A stretch of 64,000 nt of DNA, taken from NCBI RefSeq assembly GCF_010731815.2, contig NZ_AP022593.1, positions 248,001 to 312,000 on the forward strand, written 5' to 3'. Each line of letters starts with the position of its first letter. The first letter of the stretch is position 1. Source of the stretch: Mycolicibacterium arabiense. GTDB taxonomy: Bacteria > Actinomycetota > Actinomycetes > Mycobacteriales > Mycobacteriaceae. Below, one piece after another: positions 24,496 through 57,297 of the stretch. A program made the translations under genes and the position numbers. The notes below the pieces were generated by a model. That model saw nothing but the letters and a program-made list of their open reading frames with translations, was not told where the DNA came from and ran no database searches.

Positions 24496-24555
24496 GCGAG
24501 CGTGCGTGTCTGCGGGCGACACGCCGTGTCCTGACCCGATTCCACGCACGCTCGC
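24496..24555 (+). repeat. Dispersed palindromic element, copy A
   Basis: Perfect 13-bp outer stem (24496-24508 with 24543-24555). The inner part can form alternative GTGTC/GACAC hairpins (24506-24510, 24518-24522, 24526-24530). It begins 21 nt after the stop of the kinase fusion. The left half is the same core found as copies B and C. Confidence 0.8.
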
Positions 24556-24570
24556 GGCAGGCTATCGGTG

Positions 24571-24897
24571 ATGGTCATCAAGTCGATTGCACTGTTCGTG
24601 GCGGCCGCGCTGCTGGAGATCGGCGGGGCCTGGCTGGTCTGGCAGGGCGTGCGCGTACATCGCGGATGGCTGTGGGTCGGCGCGGGCGTCCTCGCGCTCG
24701 GCGCTTACGGGTTCGTGGCCGCTTTCCAGCCCGACGCCAACTTCGGCCGGGTACTTGCCGCGTACGGCGGTGTCTTCATCGCGGGGTCGCTGCTGTGGGG
24801 AATGATCGCCGACGGGTTCCGGCCCGACCGCTGGGACGTCAGTGGCGCCGTGATCTGCCTCGTGGGAGTCGGCCTGATCATGTATGGGCCGAGGTAA
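24571..24897 (+). CDS. YnfA/UPF0060 family membrane protein
   Basis: A 108-residue four-helix membrane protein of the YnfA (UPF0060) family, distantly related to small multidrug exporters. Visible: [13 protein letters not shown] in helix 1, [19 protein letters not shown], the loop [17 protein letters not shown], and a C-terminal [13 protein letters not shown] 24571 directly follows an alternative GTG at 24568. It is wedged between repeat copy A and a small accessory patch. An efflux role is possible but unproven. Confidence 0.88.
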
Positions 24898-24901
24898 GCG
24901 G

Positions 24902-25117
24902 CTAGTCGCAGCAATCGCATACGCCGGTGAGCGTCAACTGCATTCCGCAGTTGCAGAAGCCCGCTTCGCGGCGGTTGCCTTGCGATCTCGGCACGCTAGG
25001 ACGGACCCGGGTTATGGGGTGCGCCACGTACCACGCCCCCTTGCGCGTGCTGGGGCCACGGTCGACGCCTTCACCGAGCGTGCGGATGACCTTTTCTTCC
25101 GAAACGAACCCATTCAT
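24902..25117 (-). CDS. Small Cys-rich protein with C-terminal zinc-ribbon-like motif
   Basis: A 71-residue protein starting MNGFVSEEKVIRTLGEG, ending in a Cys-rich tail (FCNCGMQLTLTGVCDCCD) that would form a compact metal site. ATG 25117 has a weak G-rich site upstream; GTG 25132 is the alternative. The 5' part is AT-richer than its neighbours and abuts the broken DUF222 fragment, so acquisition by transfer is plausible. No family is recognised. It could also be the surviving 3' end of a larger lost gene. Confidence 0.5.
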   Translation of the reverse strand: MNGFVSEEKVIRTLGEGVDRGPSTRKGAWYVAHPITRVRPSVPRSQGNRREAGFCNCGMQLTLTGVCDCCD

Positions 25118-25139
25118 GTAGCCCCACGCCACTGCTAAC

Positions 25140-25379
25140 CCGCAACCGGAACGCCACCAGCTTGCTCATCGTGGTGGCGCCGTAATCGAGTGGGTTGGTC
25201 TCCGCGGCGAGGCGGTTAAGGATGCGGTGTTCGGTTACCGGCAGCAGCCGCCGGACGGACTCGACGTCGTCCATGGCGGCCATCAACTCCGCGACCGTTG
25301 CGGTGTCGGTGTCGGCGGCGATCAGGTCGGCCGCCGCGGCGCGCAACGCTGCTGCCGCGTCGACCAGACTGGGTGCCAT
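25140..25379 (-). pseudogene. DUF222 (13E12 repeat family) N-terminal remnant
   Basis: About 80 residues from MAPSLVDAAAAL through DDVESVRRLLPVTEHRILNRLAAETNP to SKLVAFRLRVSSG match the N-terminal DUF222 region of the 13E12/HNH repeat proteins scattered through mycobacterial genomes. Full proteins run to 400 or more residues and end in an HNH nuclease. Here similarity stops near 25140, where the unrelated Cys-rich gene begins, so it is a truncated relic. Confidence 0.7.
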
Positions 25380-25430
25380 ACATCGAACACTAGTGCGAGG
25401 GTCCGACAAGTCACGCCCGCATTGTTATGT

Positions 25431-25500
25431 GTGAAGCCGTTGTGACGCATGAGTTTTGGCGAATCGCCGAGTGTCGAAGTGTGTCACGCGTGAAGCCGTT
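25431..25500 (+). repeat. Short direct repeats in a gene-free gap
   Basis: GTGAAGCCGTT occurs at 25431-25441 and again at 25490-25500. The surrounding 25380-25650 gap contains no gene; besides repeat copy B it holds only a C-rich tract (25539-25565). The repeats could be an insertion scar or an operator pair. Confidence 0.35.
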
Positions 25501-25565
25501 TCGCGTGCCTCAACCCATCACTCGCCGACACCTCACCGCCCACGCCAACACCCCCCAACCCACCC

Positions 25566-25625
25566 GCGAGCGTGCACAAACTCCCGCCCCAACCCGGCGT
25601 GTCGCCCGCAGACACGCACGCTCGC
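25566..25625 (-). repeat. Dispersed palindromic element, copy B
   Basis: Read on the minus strand, its first 33 bases are identical to the left half of copy A. The outer stem here is 10 bp (25566-25575 with 25616-25625). It lies 26 nt after the stop of the minus-strand SCO6745-type gene, so its orientation relative to the upstream gene is the same as in copies A and C. Confidence 0.8.
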
Positions 25626-25650
25626 CGAAAGAGGGAAGAAAGCTACCGCA

Positions 25651-26541
25651 CTAACGCAGGTGGGGCTTGTCGTCGTCGAGGTCGTCGCGGCCCAGGCCCA
25701 TGGGCGTTGCGGCGGGGATGTCGCCGGCTGCGATCACCGTCCGCGTGATGGGCGTGAGCGTGCGGAAGAGCAGCGTCAGGTCGGCGTCGTCGAGCGCGTC
25801 GAACGCCGGCAGTGCCAGCGCATCGGTCGTGTCCTCGATGCGTTGCTTGAGGTCGCGTCCGGCGTCGGTCAGCGCCCCGGCGTCGTCGACCAGGCCGCGT
25901 TCCACCAGACGACCGGTGCAGTCGCGCCACTCGTCCTCGTCGTAATGCCTGCTCTTGACGATGAACTCGCGCGGCACGCGGTCGGCCAGGGAATGCAGCA
26001 CGTTGCTCTCCCGCCCGCTGATCCCGTTGGCGACCAGCACGGCCACGTGGGCGTCGCCCCGCTGTTCGCGCAGCAGGGTGGTGGCGTGCCAGAGCCTCGC
26101 CACCGGGTCGTCCGGCCACGGCAGCGCGAGGTTCGCGGCGAACAGCGGGCGCCCGGCCCACGGTGCGCTTCGCGCAGCTCGCTTGAGAAGTGCAGTGGCA
26201 GTGCGCGTCTGGTCGTCATCGGCGATACCGCACCGCCGCAGCGCCGCGGCCGCGGACTGTTCACGGGCCTCCAGTGCGGCCGAGGGTGGCGCGAAGGTCC
26301 ACGCCGACGGCAGGGCGCGAGCGACGTGCGCCGGGGAGAAGTTGTAGAACTTCGCCGCCACCACCTCCGCCGCGACGGCGCCCAGCGGTGCCGAGCGTCC
26401 CGCGAAGTAACTCATCCAGAACCCGCGATAGCCGGCATTGTCGAATGCCGAGATGGACTCCGGCGAGAAGTAGGTCAGGGCGTGTACGGGTTCGAAGCGG
26501 TCGAACAGCCGTCGGGCGAGCTGCGGTGTTCTGGTCACCAT
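25651..26541 (-). CDS. SCO6745-family conserved protein
   Basis: A 296-residue actinobacterial conserved protein (SCO6745 type, annotated as helix-turn-helix). Typical N-terminus RRLFDRFEPVHALTYFSPE, followed by FWMSYFAGRSAPLG, KFYNFSPAHVARALPSAW and the C-terminal winged-helix-like stretch ERGLVDDAGALTDAGRDLKQRIE. An in-frame extension reaches 26634, but ATG 26541 matches the family start. Function is unestablished; DNA binding is only inferred from the C-terminal part. It is followed by repeat copy B. Confidence 0.8.
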   Translation of the reverse strand: MVTRTPQLARRLFDRFEPVHALTYFSPESISAFDNAGYRGFWMSYFAGRSAPLGAVAAEVVAAKFYNFSPAHVARALPSAWTFAPPSAALEAREQSAAAALRRCGIADDDQTRTATALLKRAARSAPWAGRPLFAANLALPWPDDPVARLWHATTLLREQRGDAHVAVLVANGISGRESNVLHSLADRVPREFIVKSRHYDEDEWRDCTGRLVERGLVDDAGALTDAGRDLKQRIEDTTDALALPAFDALDDADLTLLFRTLTPITRTVIAAGDIPAATPMGLGRDDLDDDKPHLR

Positions 26542-26566
26542 CGCAGTCAAGCATGCGGCCCGGTCC

Positions 26567-27040
26567 TCAGGACTTGAGGACCGCCGTGCCGCCGGCCAAC
26601 TCGTCGTGCTTGCCCTGCCTGGTGGGGCTGCCACTGATCGTCACGGCGATAACGAGCATCGCCACGACTCCGAGCAGGCCGCCGACGAACGGAACGATCG
26701 GCAGCAGTGTGAACGCGTTGCGGATGGCGGATTGCTTGAGGTCGGGCTTGGCGAATCCGCCTGCGCCACGCACGTGCAGCCCGAGCACCTTCTTGCCCGG
26801 GGTCCACCCCTGGGTCACCTCGAACAGCACGAAGTAGCCGAATGCGAGCGCGCCGGTGAACAAGCCCGTGACCAGAATGCTCGACAGCGAATCGGTGGCG
26901 TAGGCGAGGAAGAATCCCACCACGCCGACTATCAGGCCATCGATGACACGCGCGAGCCACCGGGTGAACAAGCCACCCGGTTGGCCTCGCGTCGGGTCGG
27001 TACTGCCGTATGGAGCGGAGAGGGGATTACCAGCCGTCAT
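26567..27040 (-). CDS. RDD-family membrane protein
   Basis: A 157-residue membrane protein with an RDD domain: the signature ARVIDGLIVGVV (Arg and Asp) in helix 1, a second helix with LVTGLFTGALAFGYFVLF, the linker QGWTPGKKVLGL, and a C-terminal helix PIVPFVGGLLGVVAMLVI. ATG 27040 is chosen because TAGATT (27053-27048) sits 7 nt away, giving a one-base leader; the longer frame from 27049 would start inside it. Transport or ion-exchange roles are known for some relatives only. Confidence 0.82.
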   Translation of the reverse strand: MTAGNPLSAPYGSTDPTRGQPGGLFTRWLARVIDGLIVGVVGFFLAYATDSLSSILVTGLFTGALAFGYFVLFEVTQGWTPGKKVLGLHVRGAGGFAKPDLKQSAIRNAFTLLPIVPFVGGLLGVVAMLVIAVTISGSPTRQGKHDELAGGTAVLKS

Positions 27041-27047
27041 GCGGCAC

Positions 27048-27053
27048 AATCTA
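27048..27053 (-). promoter_or_regulatory. -10 box for near-leaderless RDD gene
   Basis: TAGATT on the minus strand; transcription predicted at 27041, one base before ATG 27040. Confidence 0.4.
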
Positions 27054-27076
27054 CGCCGGAAACGCGGCGCTCAGCG

Positions 27077-28117
27077 TCAGCTGCGACGCTGCTTCTTCGC
27101 CTGCTTCTTGGCCTGCTTCGCCTGCTGACGGGCGTTCTCGGCGATCTCCGCGCTGCGGTCTGCGGCCAGTTCGGCGATCAGTGCGCTGCGGTCGCGGGCA
27201 CGCTCGGCGAGTTCGACGCTCCGCTCGCGGGCGAGGGTGGCCAGCTCGGGTGCCCGCTTCTGCGCCTTCACGGCCAGCTTGTCACTGCGCTTCTGCGCCT
27301 TGGCGGCCAGCTTCTCGCCACGCTTGGAGGCGACCTCGGCGATCTCCGTGCTGCGCTTGGTCGCCACGTCGGCGAACTCGGCGCCGCGCTTGGAGGCCAC
27401 GTCGGCGAACTCGGCGCCGCGCTTGGAGGCGACCTCGGCGAGCACGGCGCCACGCTTGGACGCCACGTCGGCGAACTCAGCGCCGCGCTTGGAGGCGACC
27501 TCGGCGAACTCGGCGCCACGCTTGGAGGCGACGTCGGCGAGTTCTGCGCCGCGCTCACGGGCGACGTGCAGACCGCTCTGCAGGTTGTGGCCGACGCGGT
27601 CGACGAGTTCACTGTCGACGAGCGCGCCGTTCGACGAGCTGGGCAGCACGCCGGACACGGAGGCGGACACCTTCTTGGCGGCGCGGCGACCGCGCCAGCC
27701 CAGTGACGGCCGTCCTTCGGTGTCGACCGAGGCGATGATCAGGCCGCCGATGAGGCTGAGGTCGGCGAGGAACGCGCGACGCTCCGAAGCCATCCGCTCG
27801 GGATCGGACTCATTCCAGAATGCATGTGCACCAAGGCTTCCCGGGACCACACTGAACGCCAGTGCGGCCGAGGCGAGACGGGGGAGCTTGCCGGTGGCCA
27901 GCAGCAGTCCGGCACCGACTTGCACACCCGCGGTCACCTTGGCGACGGTCTCGGCGTTGGTGGGGACGTTCGGGCCCACCGGGTCGGGCAGCTTGGCCAG
28001 GCCCTCGAGCGTGGGCTTGGCGGCGTCGGCCGCCGGCTTGGGACTACGAAGCGACTCCACTCCGCGCGCGATGAACGTGGTGGCAAGCATGGGTCGTGCG
28101 ACGCGACGAATCAACAT
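27077..28117 (-). CDS. DoxX-family membrane protein with thirteen 11-residue helical repeats
   Basis: A 346-residue protein. Residues 1-130 are a DoxX-type membrane region (RPMLATTFIARGVESL, QVGAGLLLATGKLPRLASAALAFSVVPGSLGAHAFW). Residues 187-329 consist of thirteen consecutive 11-residue units of the pattern [SR]-K-R-G-x-E-F-A-D-V-A, which would form one long, strongly charged helix with right-handed 11/3 periodicity. The tail is Lys/Gln-rich. DoxX proteins are four-helix membrane proteins linked to thiol stress in mycobacteria. The repeat arm is far longer than the family norm and may bind DNA, membrane or cell wall. Confidence 0.85.
   Translation of the reverse strand: MLIRRVARPMLATTFIARGVESLRSPKPAADAAKPTLEGLAKLPDPVGPNVPTNAETVAKVTAGVQVGAGLLLATGKLPRLASAALAFSVVPGSLGAHAFWNESDPERMASERRAFLADLSLIGGLIIASVDTEGRPSLGWRGRRAAKKVSASVSGVLPSSSNGALVDSELVDRVGHNLQSGLHVARERGAELADVASKRGAEFAEVASKRGAEFADVASKRGAVLAEVASKRGAEFADVASKRGAEFADVATKRSTEIAEVASKRGEKLAAKAQKRSDKLAVKAQKRAPELATLARERSVELAERARDRSALIAELAADRSAEIAENARQQAKQAKKQAKKQRRS
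27329..27526 (-). repeat. 33-bp tandem repeats in the DoxX gene
   Basis: Six near-identical 33-bp units encode residues 198-263 (SKRGAEFADVA type). They differ from each other at only a few positions, so unit number is likely to vary between strains by slippage or recombination. Flanking units on both sides keep the 11-residue period but have diverged at DNA level. Confidence 0.85.
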
Positions 28118-28219
28118 GCGCCCATCATTCCCCGCCGATCATGATCACAAACACGCCGAGGCCCCCCTTCGGGGTAACTTCGCATTAGGTCCAAGTTCTG
28201 CGTAACCAAAGGAGACGGC

Positions 28220-29617
28220 GTGGCGCTCGTCGCTGGAATCGACTCGTCGACCCAGTCGTGCAAGGTCGTGGTGTGCGACGCCGATACCGGCGAGATCAGG
28301 CGGTCGGGGGCTGCCCCACACCCCGGGGGGACCGAGGTCGACCCGCACGTGTGGTGGACGGCCCTGGGAGAGGCGGCACACGCGGCCGGTGGCCTCGACG
28401 ACGTCGCCGTCGTGTCGGTGGGCGCCCAGCAGCACGGCATGGTCTGCCTCGACAAGAGCGGTCAGGTCGTTCGCCCCGCGCTGCTGTGGAACGACACCCG
28501 TTCCAGCGCCGCCGCCCGTGACCTCGTCGACGAACTCGGCGGCGCCGGACAGTGGGCGCAACGCATCGGCGTCGTCCCGGTCGCGGCCATCACGGCGGCG
28601 AAGCTGCGGTGGCTGGCCGACAACGAGCGGGATCACGCCGACGCGACGGCTGCCGTGTGCCTGCCCCACGACTGGTTGACCTGGCGGCTGTCCGGCTCCA
28701 CCGACATCGAGGACCTCCGCACCGACCGCAGCGACGCCAGCGGCACCGGGTACTTCTCCGCCGAGGACGGGTCCTACGACCTGGACCTGCTGAAGCTCGC
28801 GATGCGCGGGCGACGCCCGCTGGTGCCGGAGATCGTCGGCCCTGCCGAGGCGGCGGGGCGGACCACCACCGGTGCGGCACTGGGCGCCGGCGCCGGTGAC
28901 AACGCCGCCGCGGCACTCGGCATCGGTGCAGGCCCCGGTGATTGCGTCGTGTCGCTCGGCACGTCCGGTGTGGTCAGCGCGGTCGGTGACGCGGCGCCGC
29001 ACGACGCGAGTGGTTTGGTCGCGGGATTCGCCGACGCCACCGGGCGGCAGCTGCCGCTGGTCTGCACGCTCAACGGTGCGCCCGTGCTCGCAGCCGTCGC
29101 CAAGACGCTCGGCGTGGACTTCGACGAACTCGACCGATTGGCGCTCTCGGCGCCCGCGGGTGCCGAGGGGCTGTCCCTGGTTCCGTACTTCGACGGGGAG
29201 CGGTCGCCCAACCTGCCCGAGGCCAGCGGTGCGCTGCAGGGCATGACGACGCGAAACATGTCCTCGGCCAACGTCGCTCGCGCGGCGGTCGAGGGGTTGC
29301 TGAGTTCGATCGCATTCTGCCTCGACCAGATCGATGCCCAGGGCATCGAGGTGCGGCGGGTCATCCTCGTCGGCGGCGGCGCGCGGTCCGAGGCCGTCCG
29401 CCGGATCGCCCCGGCGATCCTGGGCAAGCCGGTGCACGTGCCGACGCCCGCCGAGTACGTCGCGCTCGGCGCTGCACGGCAGGCGGCCTGGGTGCTGTCG
29501 GAGTCCGACGAGCCGCCGTCGTGGTCGTTCGGCGTCACCGCGACCTACGAAGCGGAGCCCACCCCCGGCGTGCTCGAGCGCTATCGGGCAGCGCAACGGC
29601 TCACCCTGGGACAGTGA
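28220..29617 (+). CDS. xylB: Xylulokinase (FGGY family)
   Basis: A 465-residue FGGY carbohydrate kinase, closest in pattern to xylulokinase: [15 protein letters not shown] at the N-terminus, [11 protein letters not shown], catalytic Asp in [17 protein letters not shown], and the ATP-site block [21 protein letters not shown]. It phosphorylates D-xylulose or a related ketose. GTG start, with AAAGGAG 8 nt upstream. No xylose isomerase lies beside it. It converges with the LysR gene seven bases beyond its stop. Substrate specificity within FGGY is uncertain. Confidence 0.85.
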
Positions 29618-29624
29618 GACTCGG

Positions 29625-30572
29625 TCAGCGACGTGCCTGCGGCCGGGGCCACGCAGGCTGAGGCAGATCGTCGGCGCCCGGGCGCAGCCGATCGACGACG
29701 GCTCGCAGCGGCGGCCACGTAGACCGGCCGGCCCGGGTGACCGCATAGGCGGTGAGCACGACCGTCGGGTCGGTGAGCCGCAGCACCTTCACGCCGTCGC
29801 TGGTCGGCCTGTCCCGTGGAAGCAGGCCGACGCCGTATCCGGCGACGATCAGTTCTTCGACGAGATCGAGACTGTCGATCTGGTGCGCGATGCGTGGCGT
29901 GAATCCGGCCATCGCGCCGAGCGTGCGCACGGCGTCCTCGTCAGCGGTGTTGCGGGAGTTCACGATCCACGTCCGGTCGGCATAGCTCGCGAGGTCGACG
30001 GGCCCCTCCGGCTCGTCGGTGGGAACGCCGAGACCCCACGCCGTCGACCACAGCGCGACGGCCTCGAGCACCGGGTTCAGCGACGCCGGCGCGAGGTTGT
30101 AGTCGTAGGTCAACGCGAGGTCGAGGTCGTCGTCGACGAGCATCGCGAACGCCTCGATCGGCTCGTACTCCGAGATCACCACGTCGATCGCGGGGTGGCG
30201 CCTGGTGAGTTCGGTGAGGATCGGCAGCAGCGACACCCGAATCCCGGTGGCGAAGCCGCCGACCCGCAGCGTCCCCGCCGGGTCGGCATCCGGATCGAGG
30301 TCCAGTCGCGCGGCATCGACTGCGGCGAGGATCTCGACCGCGTGGTCGGCGAGCCGTCGCCCGGCCGGGGTCAACCGCACCCGTCGCCCGTCCGGCTCGA
30401 TCAGACGCGTGCCGGTCTCCCTGGCGAGCGCGGCGATCTGCGCGGAGACGGTCGAGGTGGTCAGATGGTGGCTCTCGGCCACCGCGCGCATGGACCCGAG
30501 CCGCGACAGAGCCAGCAGGAGCTGGAGTCGGCGGGTGTCCACGTGCCCATTCTGTGCCATTGCGTTCGGCAT
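29625..30572 (-). CDS. LysR-family transcriptional regulator
   Basis: A 315-residue LysR regulator. The winged helix-turn-helix is at residues 11-70 (RRLQLLLALSRLGSMRAVAESHHLTTSTVSAQIAALARE in outline) and the LysR substrate-binding domain follows from residue 100 (LRVGGFATGIRVSLLP, FAMLVDDDLDLAL, LIVAGYGVGLLPRD). The start at 30572 has GGGAG 8 nt upstream; 30560 is also possible. It is divergent from the thioesterase and convergent with xylB; the thioesterase is the likelier target. The inducer is unknown. Confidence 0.85.
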   Translation of the reverse strand: MPNAMAQNGHVDTRRLQLLLALSRLGSMRAVAESHHLTTSTVSAQIAALARETGTRLIEPDGRRVRLTPAGRRLADHAVEILAAVDAARLDLDPDADPAGTLRVGGFATGIRVSLLPILTELTRRHPAIDVVISEYEPIEAFAMLVDDDLDLALTYDYNLAPASLNPVLEAVALWSTAWGLGVPTDEPEGPVDLASYADRTWIVNSRNTADEDAVRTLGAMAGFTPRIAHQIDSLDLVEELIVAGYGVGLLPRDRPTSDGVKVLRLTDPTVVLTAYAVTRAGRSTWPPLRAVVDRLRPGADDLPQPAWPRPQARR

Positions 30573-30625
30573 GCCGCCGTCTCCCGAAGACCGGTGCCGG
30601 AACACGCCTGTGCGACGATGCCGAG

Positions 30626-31438
30626 ATGACCGCTCGCCCGGCCCACTTCGTGAAGACCTCCGACGACGTCTTCGAACCGACGCAGTTCGCGCAGAGCCAC
30701 TGGGGCGCCGACCATCTGAACGGGCCTGCCCTGGTCGGCCTCGCGGCGTCGGTCCTCGACGAGCGCTACGGGCTGCCGGACTTCACCCCGGCCCGGCTGA
30801 CCGTCGACCTCTTCAAGGCGGGCAGGGGAGTGCCGACCACCGCGGTCACCCGCCTCATCCGCGAGGGACGTCGGGTCCGCAACGTCGAGTGCGAGCTGAT
30901 CCAGGGTGGCAGCACGATCGTGCGCGCGGTGCTGGTGCAGTACCGCAAGTCCGAGGCCCCGCGGGGTGAGGAGTGGTCGCCGACGGCTCGTTTCACGCCG
31001 CCCGCCGACGTCGACGACACCCAGCACATCTACGTCGGTTGCGACGAAGCCGGGTGGACGGGGGCGATCGCCGATCACCAGAACGCCGCTCGCAAACGCT
31101 GCATGAACCGTTCCATCGACGCCGTGGAGGGCAGGACGAACAGCCCACTCGCCAACGCCGCGATGGCGGCCGAGGGAACCAGCCTGGTGACCAACCTCGG
31201 CAGCGCAGGTGTCGGCTACATCAACGGCGACCTGACGGTGGCGCTGTCCCGGTTGCCCGACGATCAGTGGATCGGCGTCCAGGCCGACTCGCACTGGGTG
31301 TCCGACGGCATCAGCGTCGGGACCGCGACGCTGTTCGACGCCCGCGGACCCTTCGGGACCGGCATGGTGACCGCGGTCGGCAACCCGGCGGCGCAGATCG
31401 ACTTCTCCGCCGACCCGTTTCCCGAGCGCACGCGCTGA
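30626..31438 (+). CDS. Acyl-CoA thioesterase-like (hotdog) protein
   Basis: A 270-residue protein of the actinobacterial thioesterase-family type (TesB/acyl-CoA thioesterase-like double hotdog). Visible: SHWGADHLNGPALVGLAASVL, LTVDLFKAGRGVP, the strand RNVECELIQGGSTIVRAVLVQYR, and a C-terminal hotdog with SHWVSDGISVGTATLFD. The ATG has only a poor Shine-Dalgarno, and a degenerate -10 (GACGAT, 30614-30619) sits at the leaderless distance. It probably hydrolyses an acyl-CoA; chain length is unpredictable. Confidence 0.72.
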   Translation: MTARPAHFVKTSDDVFEPTQFAQSHWGADHLNGPALVGLAASVLDERYGLPDFTPARLTVDLFKAGRGVPTTAVTRLIREGRRVRNVECELIQGGSTIVRAVLVQYRKSEAPRGEEWSPTARFTPPADVDDTQHIYVGCDEAGWTGAIADHQNAARKRCMNRSIDAVEGRTNSPLANAAMAAEGTSLVTNLGSAGVGYINGDLTVALSRLPDDQWIGVQADSHWVSDGISVGTATLFDARGPFGTGMVTAVGNPAAQIDFSADPFPERTR

Positions 31439-31470
31439 CCGAGTCGCTGTTTCTGGTTAGTCCCTGCACG

Positions 31471-31476
31471 TAGGGT
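31471..31476 (+). promoter_or_regulatory. -10 box for near-leaderless start at 31484
   Basis: TAGGGT predicts transcription at 31483, one base before GTG 31484. Confidence 0.45.
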
Positions 31477-31483
31477 TGGCGCC

Positions 31484-33992: not shown

Positions 33993-34021
33993 GCGACGAG
34001 TATGGCATCGAACCACATTCT

Positions 34022-34033
34022 GAACATCTGTTC
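34022..34033. promoter_or_regulatory. Operator-like palindrome 1 (SorC)
   Basis: GAACATCTGTTC, perfect 5-bp arms (GAACA/TGTTC). It lies 18 nt beyond the SorC -10 box and upstream of the eltD promoter. Confidence 0.55.
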
Positions 34034-34049
34034 TGCACGAGATCTTGCT

Positions 34050-34061
34050 GAACATCGGTTC
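34050..34061. promoter_or_regulatory. Operator-like palindrome 2 (SorC)
   Basis: GAACATCGGTTC, arms GAAC/GTTC, 28 bp centre-to-centre from palindrome 1, with the surrounding CTGAACATC-GTTCTG shared by both. It directly abuts the -35 of the eltD promoter, so binding would repress. Confidence 0.55.
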
Positions 34062-34091: not shown

Positions 34092-34123
34092 GAGCCCGAC
34101 CACACGTGCGAAGGAGTGCATTG

Positions 34124-46150: not shown

Positions 46151-46154
46151 GAAC

Positions 46155-47887: not shown

Positions 47888-47890
47888 GCC

Positions 47891-49099: not shown

Positions 49100-49163
49100 G
49101 GCGGCACTGCCTTTCGTCGGTTGCGGAAGGGGGCGGAGTCTTCGTGGGGCGGACGCGCGTGGG

Positions 49164-50402
49164 CTAGTCGTCGAGCATTTCCTCGAGGTCCTCGGTGGTG
49201 GGGATGTCTGCCGCCGGCAGCACCAGGGCTGCCTCGGCATCCCAGCCGGCGTAGACCCGGTCCCCGGGCCTGACTGCCGGAAGCTTCTGCTCCGCTCCGA
49301 CGTGGGCCAGGACGATCGAGCCGTCGGGTGCCACCACCGACACCCGCATCACCGGACCCTGGAACGTCAAGTCCTGCACGGTGGCCGGCACCGACGCGGC
49401 GTCGCCGCCCAACGGTTCGACCGAGACGCGCACCCGCTCGGGGCGGACCATGACCGTGGCCTGGCCCCCGGTCTCGATCGTCGTCTCGCCTGAGCGCGCG
49501 CGCAGCGTGGTCCCGAGCACGGCGACCTCGGCGAAGCCGCCGTCGCGGCCGGTCTGGCGACCGGGCCAGAGATTCGCCTGCCCGATGAAGTTGGCCACGA
49601 AGACCGTCGCCGGCGCATCGTAGATCTCGGTCGGCGACCCGATCTGCTCGACGTTGCCCGCGTTCATGACCGCGATGCGGTCACTCATGGTCAACGCCTC
49701 CTCCTGGTCGTGCGTCACGTAGATGAACGTGATGCCGACCTCGCGCTGGATGCGCTTGAGTTCGAACTGCATGGCGTGACGCAGCTTGAGGTCGAGTGCG
49801 CCGAGCGGTTCGTCGAGCAGCAGGGCGCTGGGGTAGTTGACCAGGGCGCGGGCCAGTGCGACGCGCTGCTGCTGGCCGCCGGACAGTTGTGACGGCCTGC
49901 GCTTGGCGAAGTCACCGAGGCGCACGATGTCGATGATCTCGTCGACGCGCCGCTTGATCTCGGCCTTGTCCTTCTTCATCGAGCGCGGGCCGTAGGCCAC
50001 GTTGTCCCACACCGACATGTGCGGGAACAGCGCGTAGTGCTGGAACACCGTGTTGACGTTGCGCTTGTGCGGCGGCACCTTCGACACGTCGGCGCCCTCG
50101 AGCCGGATGGCGCCGCTCGTCGGGGTCTCGAACCCGGCGATCATCCGCAGGGTGGTGGTCTTGCCGCATCCCGACGGGCCGAGCATGGAGAAGAACTCGC
50201 CGGAGGCGATCGAGAAGTGCGCGTCGGCGACGGCCACGTAGTCCTCGAACCGCTTCGTGACGTGGTCTATCTCGATGACCGGGCGTCCCGTGCCGAGGGC
50301 TGCCCCGTCCTCTCCTGTCGTGTGGTCGACGGCTGTGCTGCCTGTGCCGGTCAGATCAGTTCTCCCTCGTGCTCGCACGGCGGCTGTCCGTTCAGAGGCC
50401 AT
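49164..50402 (-). CDS. potA: Polyamine ABC transporter ATPase PotA
   Basis: A 412-residue ATPase: Walker [12 protein letters not shown]-loop with the normal Gln ([13 protein letters not shown]), signature [15 protein letters not shown], Walker [12 protein letters not shown], switch VTHDQEEA, then a TOBE domain with [12 protein letters not shown]. The first 40 residues are not conserved, so the start is uncertain (50447 is also possible). First gene of the pot operon, 64 nt before potD. It gives a useful contrast to the Glu-bearing ATPases of the tetritol importer. Confidence 0.88.
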
Positions 50403-50614
50403 GGCAGCCCCATGCAGCCCGTGCGCTGTGGGTAAACCTTCACCCATTGGACGTACCTTCGCAACCGTTTCCGCAACGAATTCAGATTTTCACGATGGAT
50501 TCCCTCATCGCGGGCGTTGCTCAGGCGCAGAATCCGCGTCGACGCTCTATCGACCGAACGGCTGAAGGGACGCCGACCGACTGAGACCGCGGCCGAGCGT
50601 GATCGAATGAGCGG

Positions 50615-52066
50615 ATGCCAGACCCACGTTCCGCCGCATCGATCGCCGGGGAGGGCTCGGTCGCCACGAGCGCCCTGAGCGCGGCTCCCTTTCAGGGCCG
50701 CAGCCCGACGGCAGCGGGTGACTTCCACGTCGAGACGCACGGCATCGCGCCCGTGGCGATCGACAAGCGCTACGGCAGCCCGCGTCGACTCTTCACCGTC
50801 TGGTTCGCGCCGCAGGTCAACATGACCGGCGTCTTCACCGGCGCCCTGGCGATCGCGCTCGGGTTGGGGTTCTGGCTCGGCCTGCTCGCGATGCTCATCG
50901 GCACCGTGCTCGGTTCGCTGGTCGTCGGCTATCTGTCCACCTGGGGACCGCGCACCGGGACCGGCCAGTTGCCGACGGCGCGAATGGCGTTCGGCGGCAC
51001 CGTGGTGGTGCCCGCAGCGTTGCAGTGGCTGTCGTCGATCGCGTGGGACGCGCTTGTCGGGCTGTTCGGCGGCGAGGCGCTCTCGGCGCTGCTCGGCATA
51101 CCGTTCTGGGCTGCGGTGCTGATCGTCCTCGGCGTACAGGGCGTGGTCGGGTTCTTCGGCTACGAACTGATCCACCGACTGCAGGCCGTACTCACCGTGG
51201 TGTTGCTCGCGACGTTCGTCGTGTTCGCCGTCAAGCTCGTCGGCGGTCACGACGTGATCGTGCCCGCGACCGTCACCGGCCCCGACCTCGTCGGCGCGTT
51301 CATCCTCGAGGTGACGATCGCGTTCAGCCTGTCGGTGTCGTGGGCGAGCTATGCCGCGGACTTCAGCCGCTACTTGCCCGCCGACTCGTCGCGGATGCGG
51401 GTGTTCGGGTACACCTTCGCCGGTATCGCGCTGGCCTACACCTTCATCCAGGGCATAGGCGTCGCCGCGGGCGAGCTGGTGTCCGAGCACTCCGTGGAAG
51501 GCGTGCAAAGCGTCATGGGTGGGGGAGTCATCGGCGCCCTGGCGCTGGCGATCATCGCCCTGGCCTCGGTGGGGTCTGGGGTGATGAACGACTACAGCGG
51601 CTCGCTGGCCCTGCAGACCTTGGGCGTCCGGGTGCGCAGGCCGGTGTCGGCAGTGGTCGTGACGGTGCTGGCGTTCGGGCTGATCCTGTGGCTGCACGCG
51701 GCCGACACCGCCACCCGCTTCCAGGACGTGCTCTTGCTCATCGGGTACTGGATCCCGGGGTTCGTCGCCGTCGTCGTGGTCGACTGGATGATGCGGACGC
51801 GCCGGGGAGCCGACGGCAGGGGCAGGGCGACCATCGATCCCAGCGTCGAGAGCACGGGGCGCACCGATGCGATCGCAGCGCTGGTGGCCTTCGTCGTCGC
51901 CTACCTGGCCGCAGTGCCGTTCATGAACACCTCGCTGATCCAGGGGCCGGTGGCCGTGGCGTGGCACGGCGCCGACATCGCCTACTTCGTCGACTTCGCC
52001 GTCGCGCTGCTGATCTACGGCGGTTACCGCGTGGCGCGGGGTCGCCCCGCTACTGTTCGGAATTGA
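50615..52066 (+). CDS. NCS1-family purine/cytosine permease
   Basis: A 483-residue, twelve-helix NCS1 transporter of the cytosine/purine permease type: VETHGIAPVAIDKRYGSPRRLFTVWFAPQVNMT near the N-terminus (outline), GTGQLPTARMAFG, SVSWASYAADFSRYLP, and GVMNDYSGSLALQTLG. It is divergent from potA across 212 bp holding no recognisable operator. Its ligand is probably a nucleobase, thiamine-like compound or hydantoin; distinct from the allantoin-locus permease at 58898. Confidence 0.85.
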   Translation: MPDPRSAASIAGEGSVATSALSAAPFQGRSPTAAGDFHVETHGIAPVAIDKRYGSPRRLFTVWFAPQVNMTGVFTGALAIALGLGFWLGLLAMLIGTVLGSLVVGYLSTWGPRTGTGQLPTARMAFGGTVVVPAALQWLSSIAWDALVGLFGGEALSALLGIPFWAAVLIVLGVQGVVGFFGYELIHRLQAVLTVVLLATFVVFAVKLVGGHDVIVPATVTGPDLVGAFILEVTIAFSLSVSWASYAADFSRYLPADSSRMRVFGYTFAGIALAYTFIQGIGVAAGELVSEHSVEGVQSVMGGGVIGALALAIIALASVGSGVMNDYSGSLALQTLGVRVRRPVSAVVVTVLAFGLILWLHAADTATRFQDVLLLIGYWIPGFVAVVVVDWMMRTRRGADGRGRATIDPSVESTGRTDAIAALVAFVVAYLAAVPFMNTSLIQGPVAVAWHGADIAYFVDFAVALLIYGGYRVARGRPATVRN

Positions 52067-52112
52067 CGGCCGCGGCCAATCCAGGCGACCGGCCAGATCG
52101 AAAGGAACGACC

Positions 52113-52592
52113 ATGCGTCCCGCAACACTGGCCAAGACGGGTGCCGCCGCGTTGACGACGGCGGTCGTGGGCGGCCTGGCTAGCCGTCCCGCGCAGTCAG
52201 CCTGGTACGCGAGCCTGCGCAAGCCGAGCTTTCAGCCTCCGCGGCAGGCGTTCCCGATCGTCTGGCCAATCCTGTACGCCGACATCGCCGCGGTGTCGGC
52301 GAACGCGATCGACTCGCTGACCGAGCAGGGGCGGCGCGACGAGGCGAAGACCTTCGCGGGACTGCTCGCGCTCAACCTCGTCCTCAACGGCAGCTGGTCG
52401 TGGCTGTTCTTCAACCAGCGCAAGCTGGGCACCTCGGCGATCGCCGCGGGAGCGCTGGCAGCCAGCAGTGCCGACCTCACCCGCAGGGCCGTCGCGGTGA
52501 ACGGCGCCTCGGCCGCTCCGCTGGGCCTGTACCCGCTGTGGTGTGCCTTCGCGACCGCGCTGTCGACTCGGATCTGGATGCTCAACCGGTGA
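52113..52592 (+). CDS. TspO/MBR-family membrane protein
   Basis: A 159-residue five-helix TspO/MBR protein, which binds tetrapyrroles and cholesterol-like ligands and affects stress responses in bacteria. Visible: the WYASLRKPSFQPP loop after helix 1, FPIVWPILYADIA, LNLVLNGSWSWLFF with the helix-3/4 Trp cluster, and PLGLYPLWCAFATAL. GAAAGGA precedes the ATG. Its stop overlaps the next start by one base, so the two are co-translated. Confidence 0.87.
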   Translation: MRPATLAKTGAAALTTAVVGGLASRPAQSAWYASLRKPSFQPPRQAFPIVWPILYADIAAVSANAIDSLTEQGRRDEAKTFAGLLALNLVLNGSWSWLFFNQRKLGTSAIAAGALAASSADLTRRAVAVNGASAAPLGLYPLWCAFATALSTRIWMLNR

Positions 52593-53080
52593 TGGCGAAG
52601 TCCGAGGGAGAGAACGAGGAGGACCGGCAGCGCCTCGCCGACCGCGTGCTCGGCTGGGTCGAGGACGCGATCTACTGGGCCATCGCCGCGGTCCTGGTGC
52701 TGGGTTCGGTGGCACTGCTCGTCGCGCAGTTCAACAAGCTCCTGCACCTCAAGGACACGCCCACCTCGACGCTCACCGTCGAGATCCTCGACGGACTGCT
52801 GCTCATCTTCATCTTCGTGGAACTGCTGTACGCGGTCCGGGTGAGCCTGCGCTCGCACGAGATCGTCGTCGAACCCTTCCTCATCGTCGGCATCCTCGCC
52901 GCGATCAAGGAGATCGTCGTGCTGTCGGTCGAAGCGGCGACCCTGTTGACCAAGGGGCCGGAGTTCTCCCGCGCCGCAGTGGAGATCGGCCTCCTCGGCG
53001 GTGTGGTCCTGGTGCTGTCGGCGTCGGCGTACATCATGCGAGAGCGCAGGAAGGATGGCGGCGTCCAGGCCGAGACCTGA
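52592..53080 (+). CDS. PsiE-like membrane protein
   Basis: A 162-residue membrane protein resembling the phosphate-starvation-inducible PsiE family. An acidic N-terminus (MAKSEGENEED) precedes helices near residues 25-47, 70-85, 98-118 and 128-148, with VSLRSHEIVVEPFLIVGILAAIKEIVVL in the middle. It shares a base with the tspO stop. It converges with the epoxide hydrolase; the two stops sit in the 10-bp palindrome TGAGGCCTCA. Function is unknown. Confidence 0.75.
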   Translation: MAKSEGENEEDRQRLADRVLGWVEDAIYWAIAAVLVLGSVALLVAQFNKLLHLKDTPTSTLTVEILDGLLLIFIFVELLYAVRVSLRSHEIVVEPFLIVGILAAIKEIVVLSVEAATLLTKGPEFSRAAVEIGLLGGVVLVLSASAYIMRERRKDGGVQAET

Positions 53081-53084
53081 GGCC

Positions 53085-54281
53085 TCAGCGCACCGTCGCG
53101 AAGAACGCCCGCACGTCGTCGACGAACAACTCGGGCTGCTCGAAGGCCGCGAAGTGGCCGCCGCGCGGCATCGTCGTCCAGTGCGTGATGGCGTAATTCG
53201 GCTCGCACCACGACCGCGGCGGCGCACCGATCTCCTTGGGGAACGACGCGACGCCCGTGGGCAATTCGACGCGGCCGAACGACCCGAACGACGCCATGCT
53301 CTCCCAGTACAGCCGGGCCGAGGACGCGCCAGTGCCGGTGACCCAGTAGAGCATCACGTTGTCGAGCATCTCGTCGCGACTCAACGCGTTCTCGGGATGG
53401 CCGTCGCAGTCGGTCCACGACCAGAACTTCTCGACGATCCATGCCAGTTGCGCGGCGGGGGAGTCGACGAGGCCGTAGCCGACGGTCTGCGGCCGGGTCG
53501 CCTGCTGCTTGAAGTAGCCGCTGTCCCACTGCCGGTAGTAGTTCATGCCCGCGAGTGCGGCCTTGTCCTCCTCCGTCGGGTTGGTCTTGGCCTCCTCGGT
53601 GGGACCGGCGATCGGGAAGTTGGTGTGGATGGCGCAGCAGTGCCCGACGTTGCGGCCGATCTGCGCGGTGACCGCGCCGCCCCAGTCGCCGCCCTGTGCG
53701 CCGTAGCGGTCGTAGCCGAGCCGGACCATCAGCGTCTCCCAGGCCCTGGCGATCCGGTCGACGTTCCACCCGGTCGCCGTCGGCTTGCCCGAGAACCCGT
53801 AGCCCGGCAGCGATGGACACACCACGTGAAAGGCGTCCTCGGCCCGACCGCCGTGAGCGGTCGGGTTGGTCAGCGGCTCGACGACCTTCGCGAACTCGAC
53901 CACCGATCCGGGCCAGCCGTGCGTGATGACGATCGGGAAGGCGTCGGGATGCGGCGAACGCTGATGGATGAAGTGCACGTCGAGGCCATCGATCTCGGTG
54001 ACGAATTGGTCGAAGCGGTTGAGCGCGGTTTCGCGTGTCCGCCAGTCGTATTCGTTGGCCCAGTAGGCGGCGAGTTCCTGGGTGTAGGCCAGGGGGATGC
54101 CCTGGCTCCAGTCGAGTTCGTCCCCAGATCCCACGGCCTCGGGTTCGGGCCACCGCGTGTGGTTCAGCCGCTGGCGCAGATCGGTGAGCACGTCGTCGGG
54201 TACGTCGATGCGGAACGGGGTGACGCGGTCGGGGTGGTCTGTGTCGTCGAGGATGTCGCTGCCATCAGTGTCGGGTGCCAT
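53085..54281 (-). CDS. Epoxide hydrolase (microsomal type, EHN domain)
   Basis: A 398-residue alpha/beta-hydrolase epoxide hydrolase with N-terminal EHN domain (residues 20-125: FRIDVPDDVLTDLRQRLNHTRWP, WRTRETALNRFDQFVTEIDGL). The oxyanion motif is HGWPGS at 121-126, the nucleophile Asp199 is in QGGDWGGAV, and the catalytic His is in PRGGHFAAFEQPE near the end. It opens epoxides to diols. ATG 54281 lies inside the adenylate cyclase gene, overlapping by 17 nt, so it is downstream in the same operon. Confidence 0.9.
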   Translation of the reverse strand: MAPDTDGSDILDDTDHPDRVTPFRIDVPDDVLTDLRQRLNHTRWPEPEAVGSGDELDWSQGIPLAYTQELAAYWANEYDWRTRETALNRFDQFVTEIDGLDVHFIHQRSPHPDAFPIVITHGWPGSVVEFAKVVEPLTNPTAHGGRAEDAFHVVCPSLPGYGFSGKPTATGWNVDRIARAWETLMVRLGYDRYGAQGGDWGGAVTAQIGRNVGHCCAIHTNFPIAGPTEEAKTNPTEEDKAALAGMNYYRQWDSGYFKQQATRPQTVGYGLVDSPAAQLAWIVEKFWSWTDCDGHPENALSRDEMLDNVMLYWVTGTGASSARLYWESMASFGSFGRVELPTGVASFPKEIGAPPRSWCEPNYAITHWTTMPRGGHFAAFEQPELFVDDVRAFFATVR

Positions 54282-55800
54282 GCACCACATTGTGGTCGCG
54301 TGGCACCGAGATCCGGGTGGGTTCCGATCGGCCGCGCAGCAGGACGGGGTCACGGGAGTCCCAGTGGGATCGTTCGTCGCCGTCGGCGCGGTCCAGCGCG
54401 GCACCCGAGGCCAACGTCCGGCTGACGATCTGCTTGGCGGCGTCGGCCAGTCGTGCGGCTTCGTTCACCGGATCGCCGATCACCGTGTATTCGTAGCGGT
54501 TCTCGGCGCCGATGTTGCCAGCGAACACCGGGCCGGCCGACACGCCGATGCCGAAGTCGACCACCGGCAGGGTGCGAAGCTGCTCGGCGAGGGCTCGGGC
54601 GGTGTGCAGCCCCGCCGTGGCCGCGCCGTCGGTGGCCACCGGCGCGCCGAACACCGCAAGGGCGGCGTCGCCCTGGAACTTGTTGATGAGGCCGCCCCGT
54701 TCGTCGACGGCCGCGACGACGATGCGGAAGAAGTCGTTGAGCACGTCGGCGACTTCGCGTGGGGAGCGGTGCGCAGGCAACTGGGTCGACCCGGCCATGT
54801 CGATGAACAGCACCGCGACGTCGCGCACTTCCCCGGGTGCAGCGCCGTCGGACTCGGCGAGCCGGGCGACGTCGGAGCCGACGTGGCGGCCGAACAGGTC
54901 GCGGAGTCGGTCGCGTTCGAGCAGACCCGCGACCATGCGGTTGAAGCCGTTCTGCAGCCTCCCGATCTCGGACTGCTCGTAGACGTCGACGGTGCGGCCG
55001 ATGTCGCCGCGCTCGACCTCGGCCATCGCGGCGACGACGTCGTTGAGCGGATCGGAGATCGAGCGCGACACCAGGATCAGCGACCGGATTCCGAGCCCCA
55101 CCGACACCGCCGACAGCACGACGACGGGAATGACCAGTGACGCGCTGCGGGGGATGAACCAGCCCTGGGAATGGAACACGACGAGCAGCGCGATCGCGAG
55201 ACTCGGGAGCGCCGAGGTCACCAGCCACATCAGGACCAGCCGGGCCACGACGCCCGGCGCGGTCGCGCGGCTGACGAAGTCCTTGCTCGCCGCCGCGACG
55301 ATCGGTCGTACGACGCGCAGCGTGAACAGCAGTCCGGAGCTGACGCTCGAGGTCGCCCCGAACAGCATCGCCATGACCAGCAGCACCGTCGGCCCCAGGC
55401 CGGCGTCGGCGTTGCCCGCGACCAGCACGAGCGTGCAGACCACCCAGATGCCCAGGAGGATCGCGCTCTGGCGCCGCACCAGGTTGATGGCGTGCTTGCG
55501 TTGCGCGGCATCGGGTTCGACACCTGCGGGGAACCAGCGCAGCGACCGCGCGATGCTCCAGTAACCGCCGAGGGCGGTGCCGAGGACTCCGAAGGCGATG
55601 AGCGCGACTGGGACGGCGAGCCGGGGTGGCGTCAGTGCGGTGTTCGCGCCGAAGGACTGCCCGCCAAGGGAGATGGCGACGGCCGCAACCTCGACGGCCG
55701 TGATCAGTTGGGCATACGTCAGGCCGAGGACGTAGCGCGTTCCGATGCTCCGCGCGGTGCGCGGTGCCCTGCGCTGAGCGTTCGGCATCCTTGGCGGCAT
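54265..55800 (-). CDS. Membrane-bound HAMP/class III adenylate cyclase
   Basis: A 511-residue cyclase like the M. tuberculosis Rv1318c-Rv1320c/Rv3645 group. Six membrane helices in the first half, a HAMP linker ([22 protein letters not shown]), then the catalytic domain. Both metal Asp are present ([21 protein letters not shown]), as are the Lys before FQGD and the NEAAR transition-state pair ([10 protein letters not shown]). It is therefore probably active, making cAMP. Start 55800 chosen (MPPRM); the frame stays open to 56010. Confidence 0.85.
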
Positions 55801-56008
55801 TCCTGTCGTGGGCCGGATCGGCGGGTTCGGCTGTGGTGGTAACGCTCCCACAGTCGCGTCGACTGCGACGTTCGTTTCCGGACGGGGCACCGGTTGGCCG
55901 AGGCCCGCCCGCAGTGTACATTCGTTCACTGAACCGCGACGCGGTTGCTCGTTCCATCGCGCCGCCACCGGCCGCATGGCCGTCGGATCATCGAAAGGAC
56001 CTGTCGCC

Positions 56009-57220
56009 ATGACGTTCTCCCTGGAGCTTCCCGAAGACGTCGTCGACGTCCGGGACTGGGTTCACGACTTCGCTGCACAGATCGTCAGGCCTGCGGCTGC
56101 AGAGTGGGACGAGCGCGAGGAGACGCCGTGGCCGATCATTCAGGAGGCAGCGAAGGTCGGTCTCTATTCGATGGACCTCTTCGCGACCCAGGCCGCGGAG
56201 CCCAGCGGCCTCGGCATGCTGACGGTCTTCGAGGAGATGTTCTGGGGTGACGCGGGTATCGGCCTCTCGATCCTCGGGACCGGTCTGGCGGCGGCGTCGC
56301 TCGCGGCCACCGGTACCGCGGAGCAACTGGGCGAGTGGCTGCCCCAGATGTTCGGCACGGTCGACGAACCGCTGCTGGGTTCGTTCTGCGCCTCGGAGCC
56401 GGGCGCGGGATCGGACGTCTCGGCCATCATCACGCGGGCCCGCTACGACCAGGCGACCGACGAATGGGTCATCAACGGCACCAAGACGTGGGCGACCAAC
56501 GGCGGTATCGCCAACGTGCACATCGTGGTCGCATCGGTCGAGCCGGACCTCGGTTCGCGCGGCCAGGCGACGTTCATCATCCCGCCCGGCACCAAGGGCT
56601 TCAGCCAGGGTCAGAAGTTCAAGAAGCACGGCATCCGCGCCTCGCACACCGCCGAGGTCGTGCTCGACGACGTGCGGCTCCCGGGCCGGCTGATCATCGG
56701 CGGCAAGGACAAGTTCGACGAGCGCATCGCCCGCTCGCGCGAGGGCAAGCGCTCCGCGGGCCAGGCGGCGATGAAGACGTTCGAGCGCACCCGGCCCACG
56801 GTCGGCGCGATGGCGCTCGGCGTTGCGCGGGCCGCCTACGAGTACGCCCTCGAATACGCCCAGCAGCGCGAGCAATTCGGTCGCAAGATCGGTGACTTCC
56901 AGGCGATCGCGTTCAAGCTCGCCGACATGAAGTCCCGCATCGACAGTGCCCGGCTCCTGGTGTGGCGTGCGGGCTGGATGGCGCGCAACGACCTGCCGTT
57001 CACCAACGCCGAGGGATCGATGGCCAAGCTGATCGCGAGCGAGACGGCCGTGTATGTCACCGACGAGGCCATCCAGATCCTCGGCGGCAACGGCTACACC
57101 CGCGACTACCCGGTCGAGCGCATGCACCGCGACGCCAAGATCTTCACGATCTTCGAAGGCACCAGCGAGATTCAGCGTCTGGTGATGGCCCGCGCGATCA
57201 CCGGCCTCCCCCTGAAGTAG
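56009..57220 (+). CDS. Acyl-CoA dehydrogenase
   Basis: A 403-residue FAD-dependent acyl-CoA dehydrogenase. N-terminal helical domain, then [15 protein letters not shown], the beta domain with [17 protein letters not shown], the C-terminal block [20 protein letters not shown], and [35 protein letters not shown] with the catalytic Glu position of short/medium-chain enzymes. GAAAGGA (55993-55999) fixes ATG 56009. It is divergent from the adenylate cyclase and followed by repeat copy C. Chain-length preference is unknown. Confidence 0.93.
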
Positions 57221-57233
57221 CCCGAGAGTCCTT

Positions 57234-57297
57234 CCGCGAGCGTGCGTGTCTGCGGGCGACACGCCGCCCCGCGACCCGAGTTCGCGCACGCTCGCGG
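57234..57297 (+). repeat. Dispersed palindromic element, copy C
   Basis: A 13-bp outer stem (57234-57246 with 57285-57297) enclosing the same core as copies A and B. It starts 13 nt after the acyl-CoA dehydrogenase stop and fills the gap to the convergent allB stop at 57315. Here it could terminate both genes. Confidence 0.8.

What the first reader, a model, noticed from the sequence alone, without database searches (positions are those of the whole stretch)
24496..57297. A palindromic element repeated three times, always just after a stop codon and in one orientation
Copies at 24496-24555 (+), 25566-25625 (-) and 57234-57297 (+) share a core of about 31-33 bases; A and B are identical over 33. 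Each can fold into a long stem of 10-13 bp, with alternative inner GTGTC/GACAC hairpins. Relative to the gene just upstream, all three read in the same direction and begin 13-26 nt after its stop codon. This placement rule suggests a mobile 3'-end module: a terminator, mRNA stabiliser or processing site, or a non-autonomous element that targets 3' ends. I do not recognise it as a named mycobacterial repeat.
Basis: seen in the sequence. Interest (0 to 1): 0.8.

Follow-up and report, generated by a model that had tools for sequence, protein, structure and literature searches.

The report
Mycobacterial 60-base gene-end hairpin family
The repeat is one of about fifty copies of a 60-base hairpin that mostly sits just after stop codons in this environmental mycobacterium; half of it is kept almost letter for letter, it looks like a local dialect of a gene-end hairpin known from other mycobacteria, and genes lying between two facing copies have sometimes been flipped during evolution.

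Summary
Each is a 60-bp palindrome: 31 near-invariant bases, 6 variable ones, and a right arm completing a 13-bp stem. 48 of 52 lie beside a stop codon. The one-orientation rule is only a preference (83:27 in tandem contexts over 11 genomes). In a sister species (about 94% identical), 48 of 49 assessable copies are in the same place; the left 31 bases differ by 1.2%, the variable bases by 27%. So the element is mostly inherited and strongly constrained. Related species carry their own dialects. A separate hairpin family of the genus, which I recall as the M. tuberculosis TRIT motif, has the same 60-nt length, GCGAGC end and position. Most likely this is an RNA 3'-end hairpin without a U tail (terminator-like or 3'-end barrier), a new dialect of that known kind, apparently read by sequence as well as shape. 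No RNA data were at hand. New here: facing pairs bracket small genes, and two bracketed genes are inverted between species.

The parts
24496..24555 (+). Copy A, full 60-bp element
25566..25625 (-). Copy B, full 60-bp element; faces copy A
57236..57295 (+). Copy C, full 60-bp element, between convergent genes; another palindrome stands here in the sister species G256 and in G303
24496..24526 (+). Near-invariant left 31 bases of copy A
24475..24495 (+). Pyrimidine-rich spacer between the stop codon of the upstream gene and copy A
   Evidence: tract composition over 213 copies
57221..57235 (+). Spacer between the stop codon and copy C
25626..25650 (-). Pyrimidine-rich spacer (read on the - strand) before copy B
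   Evidence: tract composition over 213 copies
22426..24474 (+). Gene G1, whose 3' end carries copy A
25651..26541 (-). Gene G2, whose 3' end carries copy B (start chosen by my gene caller)
24568..24897 (+). Bracketed gene M (109-aa, membrane-type by its sequence), inverted relative to G1 and G2 in 6 of 23 syntenic genomes
25071..25379 (-). DUF222-like remnant between M and copy B; the stretch is absent at the same place in G256
56009..57220 (+). Gene upstream of copy C
57315..58673 (-). Convergent gene downstream of copy C

Best explanation
The element is an RNA 3'-end hairpin. It is transcribed from the upstream gene and folds into a long stem (13-bp outer stem) that marks or protects the mRNA 3' end. 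Either it stops RNA polymerase as a so-called I-shaped terminator, or it is the barrier to which exonucleases trim transcripts that Rho released further on. It is a dialect, found in some Mycolicibacterium species, of a wider mycobacterial family of 60-nt gene-end hairpins that begin with GCGAGC. Because the left 31 bases are kept by sequence while the right half only roughly completes the stem, a factor that reads the left half is inferred. Shown: position, length, predicted fold, constraint, synteny, dialects. Inferred: transcription, 3'-end formation, the factor, kinship with the GCGAGCAGACGC family.
For: Placement: 48 of 52 own copies adjoin a stop codon, at most 92 nt away; 91 of 210 classed copies are between convergent genes versus 10 of 59 adjacencies in the window. 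Median gaps of convergent copies are 18 and 20 nt. Fold: all 52 form at least 8 of 10 outer pairs; mean RNA energy -34.6 versus -24.1 kcal/mol for mononucleotide shuffles. Constraint: against G256, 17 differences in 1426 left-half sites (1.2%), 74 in 276 variable sites (27%), 23 in 460 terminal right-arm sites (5%). A search by the outer arms alone, which does not ask for the core, gave 37 elements of which 35 carry it, so left-half conservation is not only a search effect. Upstream positions -7 to -3 are 83-89% pyrimidine. Same length, end and niche as the GCGAGCAGACGC family: in G006 19 of 22 palindromes exactly 60 nt, 14 of 21 classed ones convergent. A primer for M. tuberculosis in PMC5843633 reads from the pckA stop codon straight into GGCGAGCAGACGCA (passage).
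Against: No RNA data were available, so termination or protection is not shown. There is no U tract (at least 5 T in the next 10 nt in 1 of 213); a review (PMC12288462, section 8) gives only 2-4% canonical sites in M. [quoted passage not shown] The same review says that M. tuberculosis Rho prefers purine-rich RNA, so the pyrimidine tract is not an obvious Rho site. The outer 11 pairs show no strand asymmetry of wobble pairs (45 of 1485 versus 25 of 858, p = 0.90), so pairing at RNA level is not demonstrated. The left half hardly covaries with the right. 27 tandem-reverse and 9 divergent copies of 210 do not fit a one-way terminator.
Confidence: 0.67

Rival explanations
1. A DNA-level recognition site: a protein binds the conserved left half (GTGTC-N7-GACAC next to GCGAGCGTGC) as DNA, for example in recombination, replication or chromosome structure, and gene ends are merely tolerated places.
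For: The left half is constrained by sequence rather than by covariation. No wobble asymmetry between strands in the outer 11 pairs. Dialects shared by many copies of a genome suggest a trans-acting reader. No copy (core, up to 3 mismatches) between 2.71 and 4.15 Mb of the own chromosome.
Against: Tight distance to stop codons, the pyrimidine-rich leader and the 3:1 orientation preference are not expected of a DNA site. Substitution by unrelated palindromes at the same place suggests that hairpin shape at a gene end is what counts.
Confidence: 0.17
2. A non-autonomous mobile element (REP/REPIN- or MITE-like) that targets 3' ends.
For: Fixed length of 60 bp, dispersed copies, palindromic ends, facing pairs, differing sets of places between more distant species. 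4 of 53 G256 copies have no partner locus among the own copies and a fifth is missing in the own genome.
Against: 48 of 49 assessable own copies are in the same place in G256. The left half does not drift like a decaying element. The two presence/absence cases looked at closely show no clean insertion or duplication; the other four were not traced. A RAYT-type transposase was not sought.
Confidence: 0.09
3. An uptake or transfer signal like the Neisseria DUS, spread by biased DNA exchange and used secondarily as a terminator.
For: Species dialects and facing pairs at gene ends recall DUS; Cozzuto 2008 (passages) notes DUS-based stem-loop families as possible terminators.
Against: Only 52 copies of 60 bp in 6.45 Mb. 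No uptake system was sought.
Confidence: 0.04

Closest known systems
TRIT motif of M. tuberculosis gene ends (Gardner et al. 2011, RNIE; recalled, paper not held) and the GCGAGCAGACGC family found here with up to 2 mismatches in 102 of 146 genomes of the genus (own included)
   Same: Same total length (60 nt in 19 of 22, 61 in 3, genome G006), same GCGAGC end, mostly within 60 nt of stop codons, convergent gaps preferred
   Different: Sequence beyond GCGAGC differs. That family is symmetric and covaries (8 of 26 pairs with two or more Watson-Crick types; mean entropy left 0.437, right 0.391), whereas this one is asymmetric (0.075 versus 0.656). That the GCGAGCAGACGC motif is TRIT is my recollection.
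Myt-1 and Myt-8 stem-loop families of M. tuberculosis (Cozzuto et al. 2008, PMC2267715)
   Same: Repeated structured stem-loop families of a mycobacterium (Myt-1: model 72 nt, 75 members) (passages)
   Different: Their sequences are not in the passages I saw, and the table gives Myt-1 no location class, so identity, homology and placement were not tested.
I-shaped intrinsic terminators of mycobacteria (Mitra et al., as described in PMC12288462, section 8)
   Same: Hairpin without poly-U, within 50 bp of the stop codon
   Different: A structural class, not a sequence family; it would not explain the invariant left half.
REP/BIME and REPIN elements (from general knowledge)
   Same: Short extragenic palindromes near gene ends, sometimes in facing pairs
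   Different: Mostly vertically kept with strong constraint here; distance between the close pairs ranges from 149 to 4069 bp.

Membership tests
Canonical intrinsic (L-shaped) terminator | GC-rich hairpin followed by a U tract | tested here: not met
   Hairpin predicted in all 52; at least 5 T in the next 10 nt in 1 of 213 copies
I-shaped mycobacterial terminator | Hairpin without U tail within 50 bp after the stop codon | tested here: met
   77 of 83 tandem-forward copies within 50 nt; folds; 27 tandem-reverse and 9 divergent copies of 210 are not in that orientation
I-shaped mycobacterial terminator | RNA 3' end or termination at the hairpin | not testable with these tools
   No RNA data
TRIT-like 60-nt gene-end hairpins | Length of 60 nt, GCGAGC end, gene-end position | tested here: met
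TRIT-like 60-nt gene-end hairpins | Match to the published TRIT covariance model | not testable with these tools
   RNIE paper and model not held. Rfam had no hit with E up to 1 for window 24300-25800, copies A and B only
TRIT-like 60-nt gene-end hairpins | Symmetric stem supported by covariation | tested here: not met
   Left half near-invariant, right half variable; of the first 26 facing pairs only two (12 and 21) show two Watson-Crick types in the 52 own copies
Mobile palindromic element (REP/REPIN/MITE) | Presence/absence with clean boundaries or target duplication between close relatives | tested here: not met
   48 of 49 own copies shared; copy C and the G256 copy at C1:924871 are not clean insertions. 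Four further G256-only copies were not traced
Mobile palindromic element (REP/REPIN/MITE) | A RAYT or other transposase in the genome | not tested
   No search made
DNA uptake sequence | Hundreds to thousands of short copies (general knowledge) | tested here: not met
   52 copies of 60 bp

The most novel reading that the evidence does not exclude
The elements are a sequence-read 3'-end system: a trans-acting factor recognises the invariant left half in RNA or DNA and co-evolves with it, giving each species its dialect. Facing pairs around single genes then act as inversion brackets: recombination between them flips the bracketed gene without breaking any other unit, a slow orientation switch built from terminators. 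Supported so far by the constraint pattern, the dialects, and two loci (M, and X beside glyS) with at least two orientation changes each on a glyS tree.
Probability: 0.28. Interest if true: 0.75.

Novelty: new variant of a known kind. Interest (0 to 1): 0.52.

Why it matters
How mycobacteria end transcripts is unsettled: few sites have a hairpin with a U tail, Rho dominates, and the role of tail-less hairpins is disputed. A set of about fifty near-identical natural elements, with dialects, natural replacements by other palindromes, and some orthologous sites with and without them, makes the question directly testable. The constraint on one half of a palindrome points to an unknown reader. The inversions suggest a simple way in which gene orientation can change without harm.

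Tried and rejected
Rfam (evalue mode) on 24300-25800: no family; copy C was not given. Cassette idea, that facing pairs are the ends of one mobile unit: the interiors hold unrelated genes, so rejected as a single element. Inner GTGTC/GACAC hairpin as the main fold: in 1 of 52 minimum-energy folds; a DNA-dyad role is not excluded. Strand-specific wobble as proof of RNA pairing: no asymmetry in the outer 11 pairs; at pairs 12 and 13 the right letter is mostly Watson-Crick or GU, but the left letters are fixed there, so this is no independent test. DUF222 genes homing into the element: the own genome has 33 match rows, 25 genes by my count of them; the nearest to a copy is 335 bp away (C2:1342911), the next 2.1 kb, so not general. 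Phylogenetic sign test of inversion against bracketing: 2 independent pairs, no power; the plain Fisher test (p = 0.003) ignores relatedness. Own against G256: of 9 close pairs tested out of 13, the interior was found in 8 (7 facing pairs and the one same-direction pair), none inverted; in 1 it is absent. Gene calls are from my own codon-score caller, not annotation; in 2 of 52 rows (L022, L042) a called opposite-strand gene overlaps the element. One of the 46 aligned pairs (L032, minus copy) carries an indel, which inflates differences in the right half slightly; G256 partners were found by a core match of up to 6 substitutions, a mild bias. The 213 copies are those in fetched loci only (10 loci for G330), and own and G256 copies are mostly orthologous.
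Full report
1. The observation. A and B are identical over 35 bases. The window is C2:248001-312000 of a 6,451,210-base genome. The 31-base core occurs 52 times with up to 3 mismatches (39 exact; 27 forward, 25 reverse; the same pattern read backwards: 0). A search that asks only for exact 10-base outer arms and a gap of 24-54 nt, not for the core, gave 37 elements; 35 carry the core, 36 are exactly 60 bp and one is 61.

2. Anatomy. Over 52 copies, positions 1-31 are near-invariant (only position 21 varies much: G 43, C 8, A 1), 32-37 are variable, 38-47 are mostly AACCCGAGTT, and 48-60 largely complement 1-13, with GU pairs at 12 and 13. All 52 fold with the outer stem; mean RNA energy is -34.6 kcal/mol against -24.1 for mononucleotide shuffles. 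Immediately upstream lies a pyrimidine tract (positions -7 to -3: 83-89% C or T, G 2-9%; 213 copies). There is no T run downstream (1 of 213).

3. Placement. By my own codon-score gene caller, the 52 copies are 20 convergent, 20 tandem with the gene, 8 tandem against it and 4 divergent; two overlap a called opposite-strand gene. Over 213 copies in fetched loci of 11 genomes (own, G256, G330, G068, G037, G099, G082, G027, G094, G140, G039): 91, 83, 27 and 9, with 3 at edges. Tandem orientation 83:27 has p = 8e-8, and 62:18 without G256 p = 8e-7; in the own genome alone it is 20:8, p = 0.036. Related copies are not independent. In the window itself, gene adjacencies are 10 convergent, 39 tandem, 10 divergent, so convergent gaps are over-represented (91 of 210 versus 10 of 59, p = 0.0002; own alone 20 of 52, p = 0.018). 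The shortage of divergent gaps is not significant in the own genome (4 of 52 versus 10 of 59, p = 0.16). Of the 83 tandem-forward copies, 77 begin within 50 nt of the stop codon.

4. Inheritance and constraint. I fetched its loci and compared flanks. Of 52 own copies, 3 could not be assessed because the matching locus was not fetched; 48 of the remaining 49 have the element in the same place (46 paired by script, 2 seen by eye in the printed relatives, one of them only in part); 1, copy C, has another palindrome there. Over the 46 pairs the left 31 bases differ at 17 of 1426 sites (1.2%), positions 32-37 at 74 of 276 (27%), 38-47 at 47 of 460 (10%), 48-50 at 23 of 138 (17%), 51-60 at 23 of 460 (5%). 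The spacer between stop codon and element has often diverged beyond easy alignment but stays pyrimidine-rich. In the other direction, 4 of 53 fetched G256 copies have no partner locus among the own copies and one more (C1:924871) stands where the own genome has about 14 bp instead, without clean boundaries. The overall pattern is that of an inherited element under strong selection on one half, with some gain and loss.

5. Dialects and replacement. In a draw of 148 genomes of the genus (own included), 29 match the core with up to 2 mismatches, and several species favour their own version (for example TCTGAGGGC in G068, whose contigs match M. elephantis DSM 44368, and TCCCCGGGC in G094). The exact 30-mer in genome contigs gave 78 stretches, whose titles name Mycolicibacterium or Mycobacterium apart from two of a MAG labelled Actinomycetota. 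At the place of copy C, G256 and G303 carry an unrelated palindrome; that second family has 13 half-matches in the own genome and 27 in G256 with up to 3 mismatches. At the M locus, G039 and G081 carry two other palindromes and G146 a third dialect (by eye). So shape and place can be kept while the sequence family is swapped.

6. The wider family. A 22-base arm that I recalled as the M. tuberculosis gene-end motif occurs with up to 2 mismatches in 102 of 146 genomes of the genus (own included; 2 matches there). In G006, of 30 loci fetched (177 half-matches in the genome with up to 3 mismatches) I found 22 different palindromes, 19 exactly 60 nt and 3 of 61; contexts 14 convergent, 7 tandem, 1 edge. 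It is symmetric with covariation, unlike the element here. That this motif sits at an M. [quoted passage not shown] the same string is in an oligonucleotide named for Rv1219c (PMC4155686, passage). That it is the TRIT motif of the RNIE paper is recollection; the paper is not held, and PMC3526491 (passages) names a TRIT model without its sequence. A review (PMC12288462, section 8 read) describes I-shaped terminators without poly-U within 50 bp of the stop codon and Rho as the main route; older surveys (PMC1590033, PMC2267715, passages) report stem-loops concentrated at 3' ends and convergent gaps, and structured M. tuberculosis families Myt-1 and Myt-8.

7. Facing pairs and flipped genes. Neighbouring copies within 5 kb: 13 pairs, 12 of them + then - and one + then +; random placement gives a mean of 2.2 such pairs and never 13 in 20,000 draws. 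The + then - arrangement follows largely from the gene-end rule at short distance; the excess of pairs does not. Interiors hold unrelated genes. At the M locus (copies A and B), 30 loci from 27 genomes were examined; 7 are not syntenic and were dropped. Of 23, the bracketed gene M has the direction of G1 in 17 (6 of these judged by G2 alone) and is inverted in 6 (G133, G138, G081, G068, G039, G146). By eye, five of the six inverted loci have palindromes on both sides (G138 on one; in G133 one is split by an insertion; in G146 one is degenerate); of the 17 others 2 do, and several have M overlapping or abutting the G1 stop codon. Beside glyS, gene X was found in 15 of 30 genomes: 11 in the own direction, 4 inverted (one a remnant); 13 of the 15 have palindromes on both sides by my fuzzy scan; among the 15 without X, 3 have two copies back to back, 1 a weak match, 11 none. 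On a glyS tree each trait needs at least 2 changes, and the sister species G104 and G138 (support 100/99) differ in M. Against these: in G256 none of 8 interiors found is inverted, and 1 further interior is absent, so flipping is slow or rare, and the tree test of bracketing against inversion has no power.

8. Reading. The evidence supports a gene-end hairpin that is transcribed and marks the 3' end, of a known kind and a new variant of it. The step from position and constraint to termination or 3'-end protection is inference. The strongest odd fact is the asymmetry: a palindrome of which one half is fixed by sequence and the other only by rough pairing. The simplest reading is a reader protein or an RNA-polymerase-associated factor, but a DNA-binding role is not excluded. 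Inversions between facing copies are best read as ordinary recombination between inverted repeats; no recombinase was sought, and with one genome per species a live switch could not be tested.

Noticed in passing
window 25071-25379; own C2:1342911; G256 C24:205895 and C18:688110: One subfamily of DUF222 genes (two full genes in G256, one full and one remnant in the own genome) has a copy of the element just 5' of it, and in the own M locus the homology to the C2:1342576 region runs through the element itself; other own DUF222 genes lie 2 kb or more from a copy.
   Followed up: partly
own C2:2231620-2232145 (L015) and G256 C18:6798-6932 (L267): A 109-aa ORF lies between two facing copies in the own genome, while in G256 the two copies stand 15 bp apart with nothing between.
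   Followed up: partly
own C2:2.71-4.15 Mb: A 1.44 Mb stretch of the chromosome holds no copy of the core; whether it is the terminus region was not tested.
   Followed up: no
L183 (G133): A copy beside M is split by an insertion of more than 1 kb that reads like an insertion sequence (type not tested).
   Followed up: no
window 27077-28090: A gene of 337 codons with a 33-base tandem repeat (VASKRGAEFAD-like units).
   Followed up: no
own C2:541802-541854 and others: A second palindrome family, 53 nt where both arms match (GCGATTCGTGGA...): 13 half-matches in the own genome, 27 in G256, 5 in G330.
   Followed up: partly
G330 at the copy C locus (L210): The element there carries an insert of about 20 nt in its left arm that itself looks like a small hairpin.
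   Followed up: no
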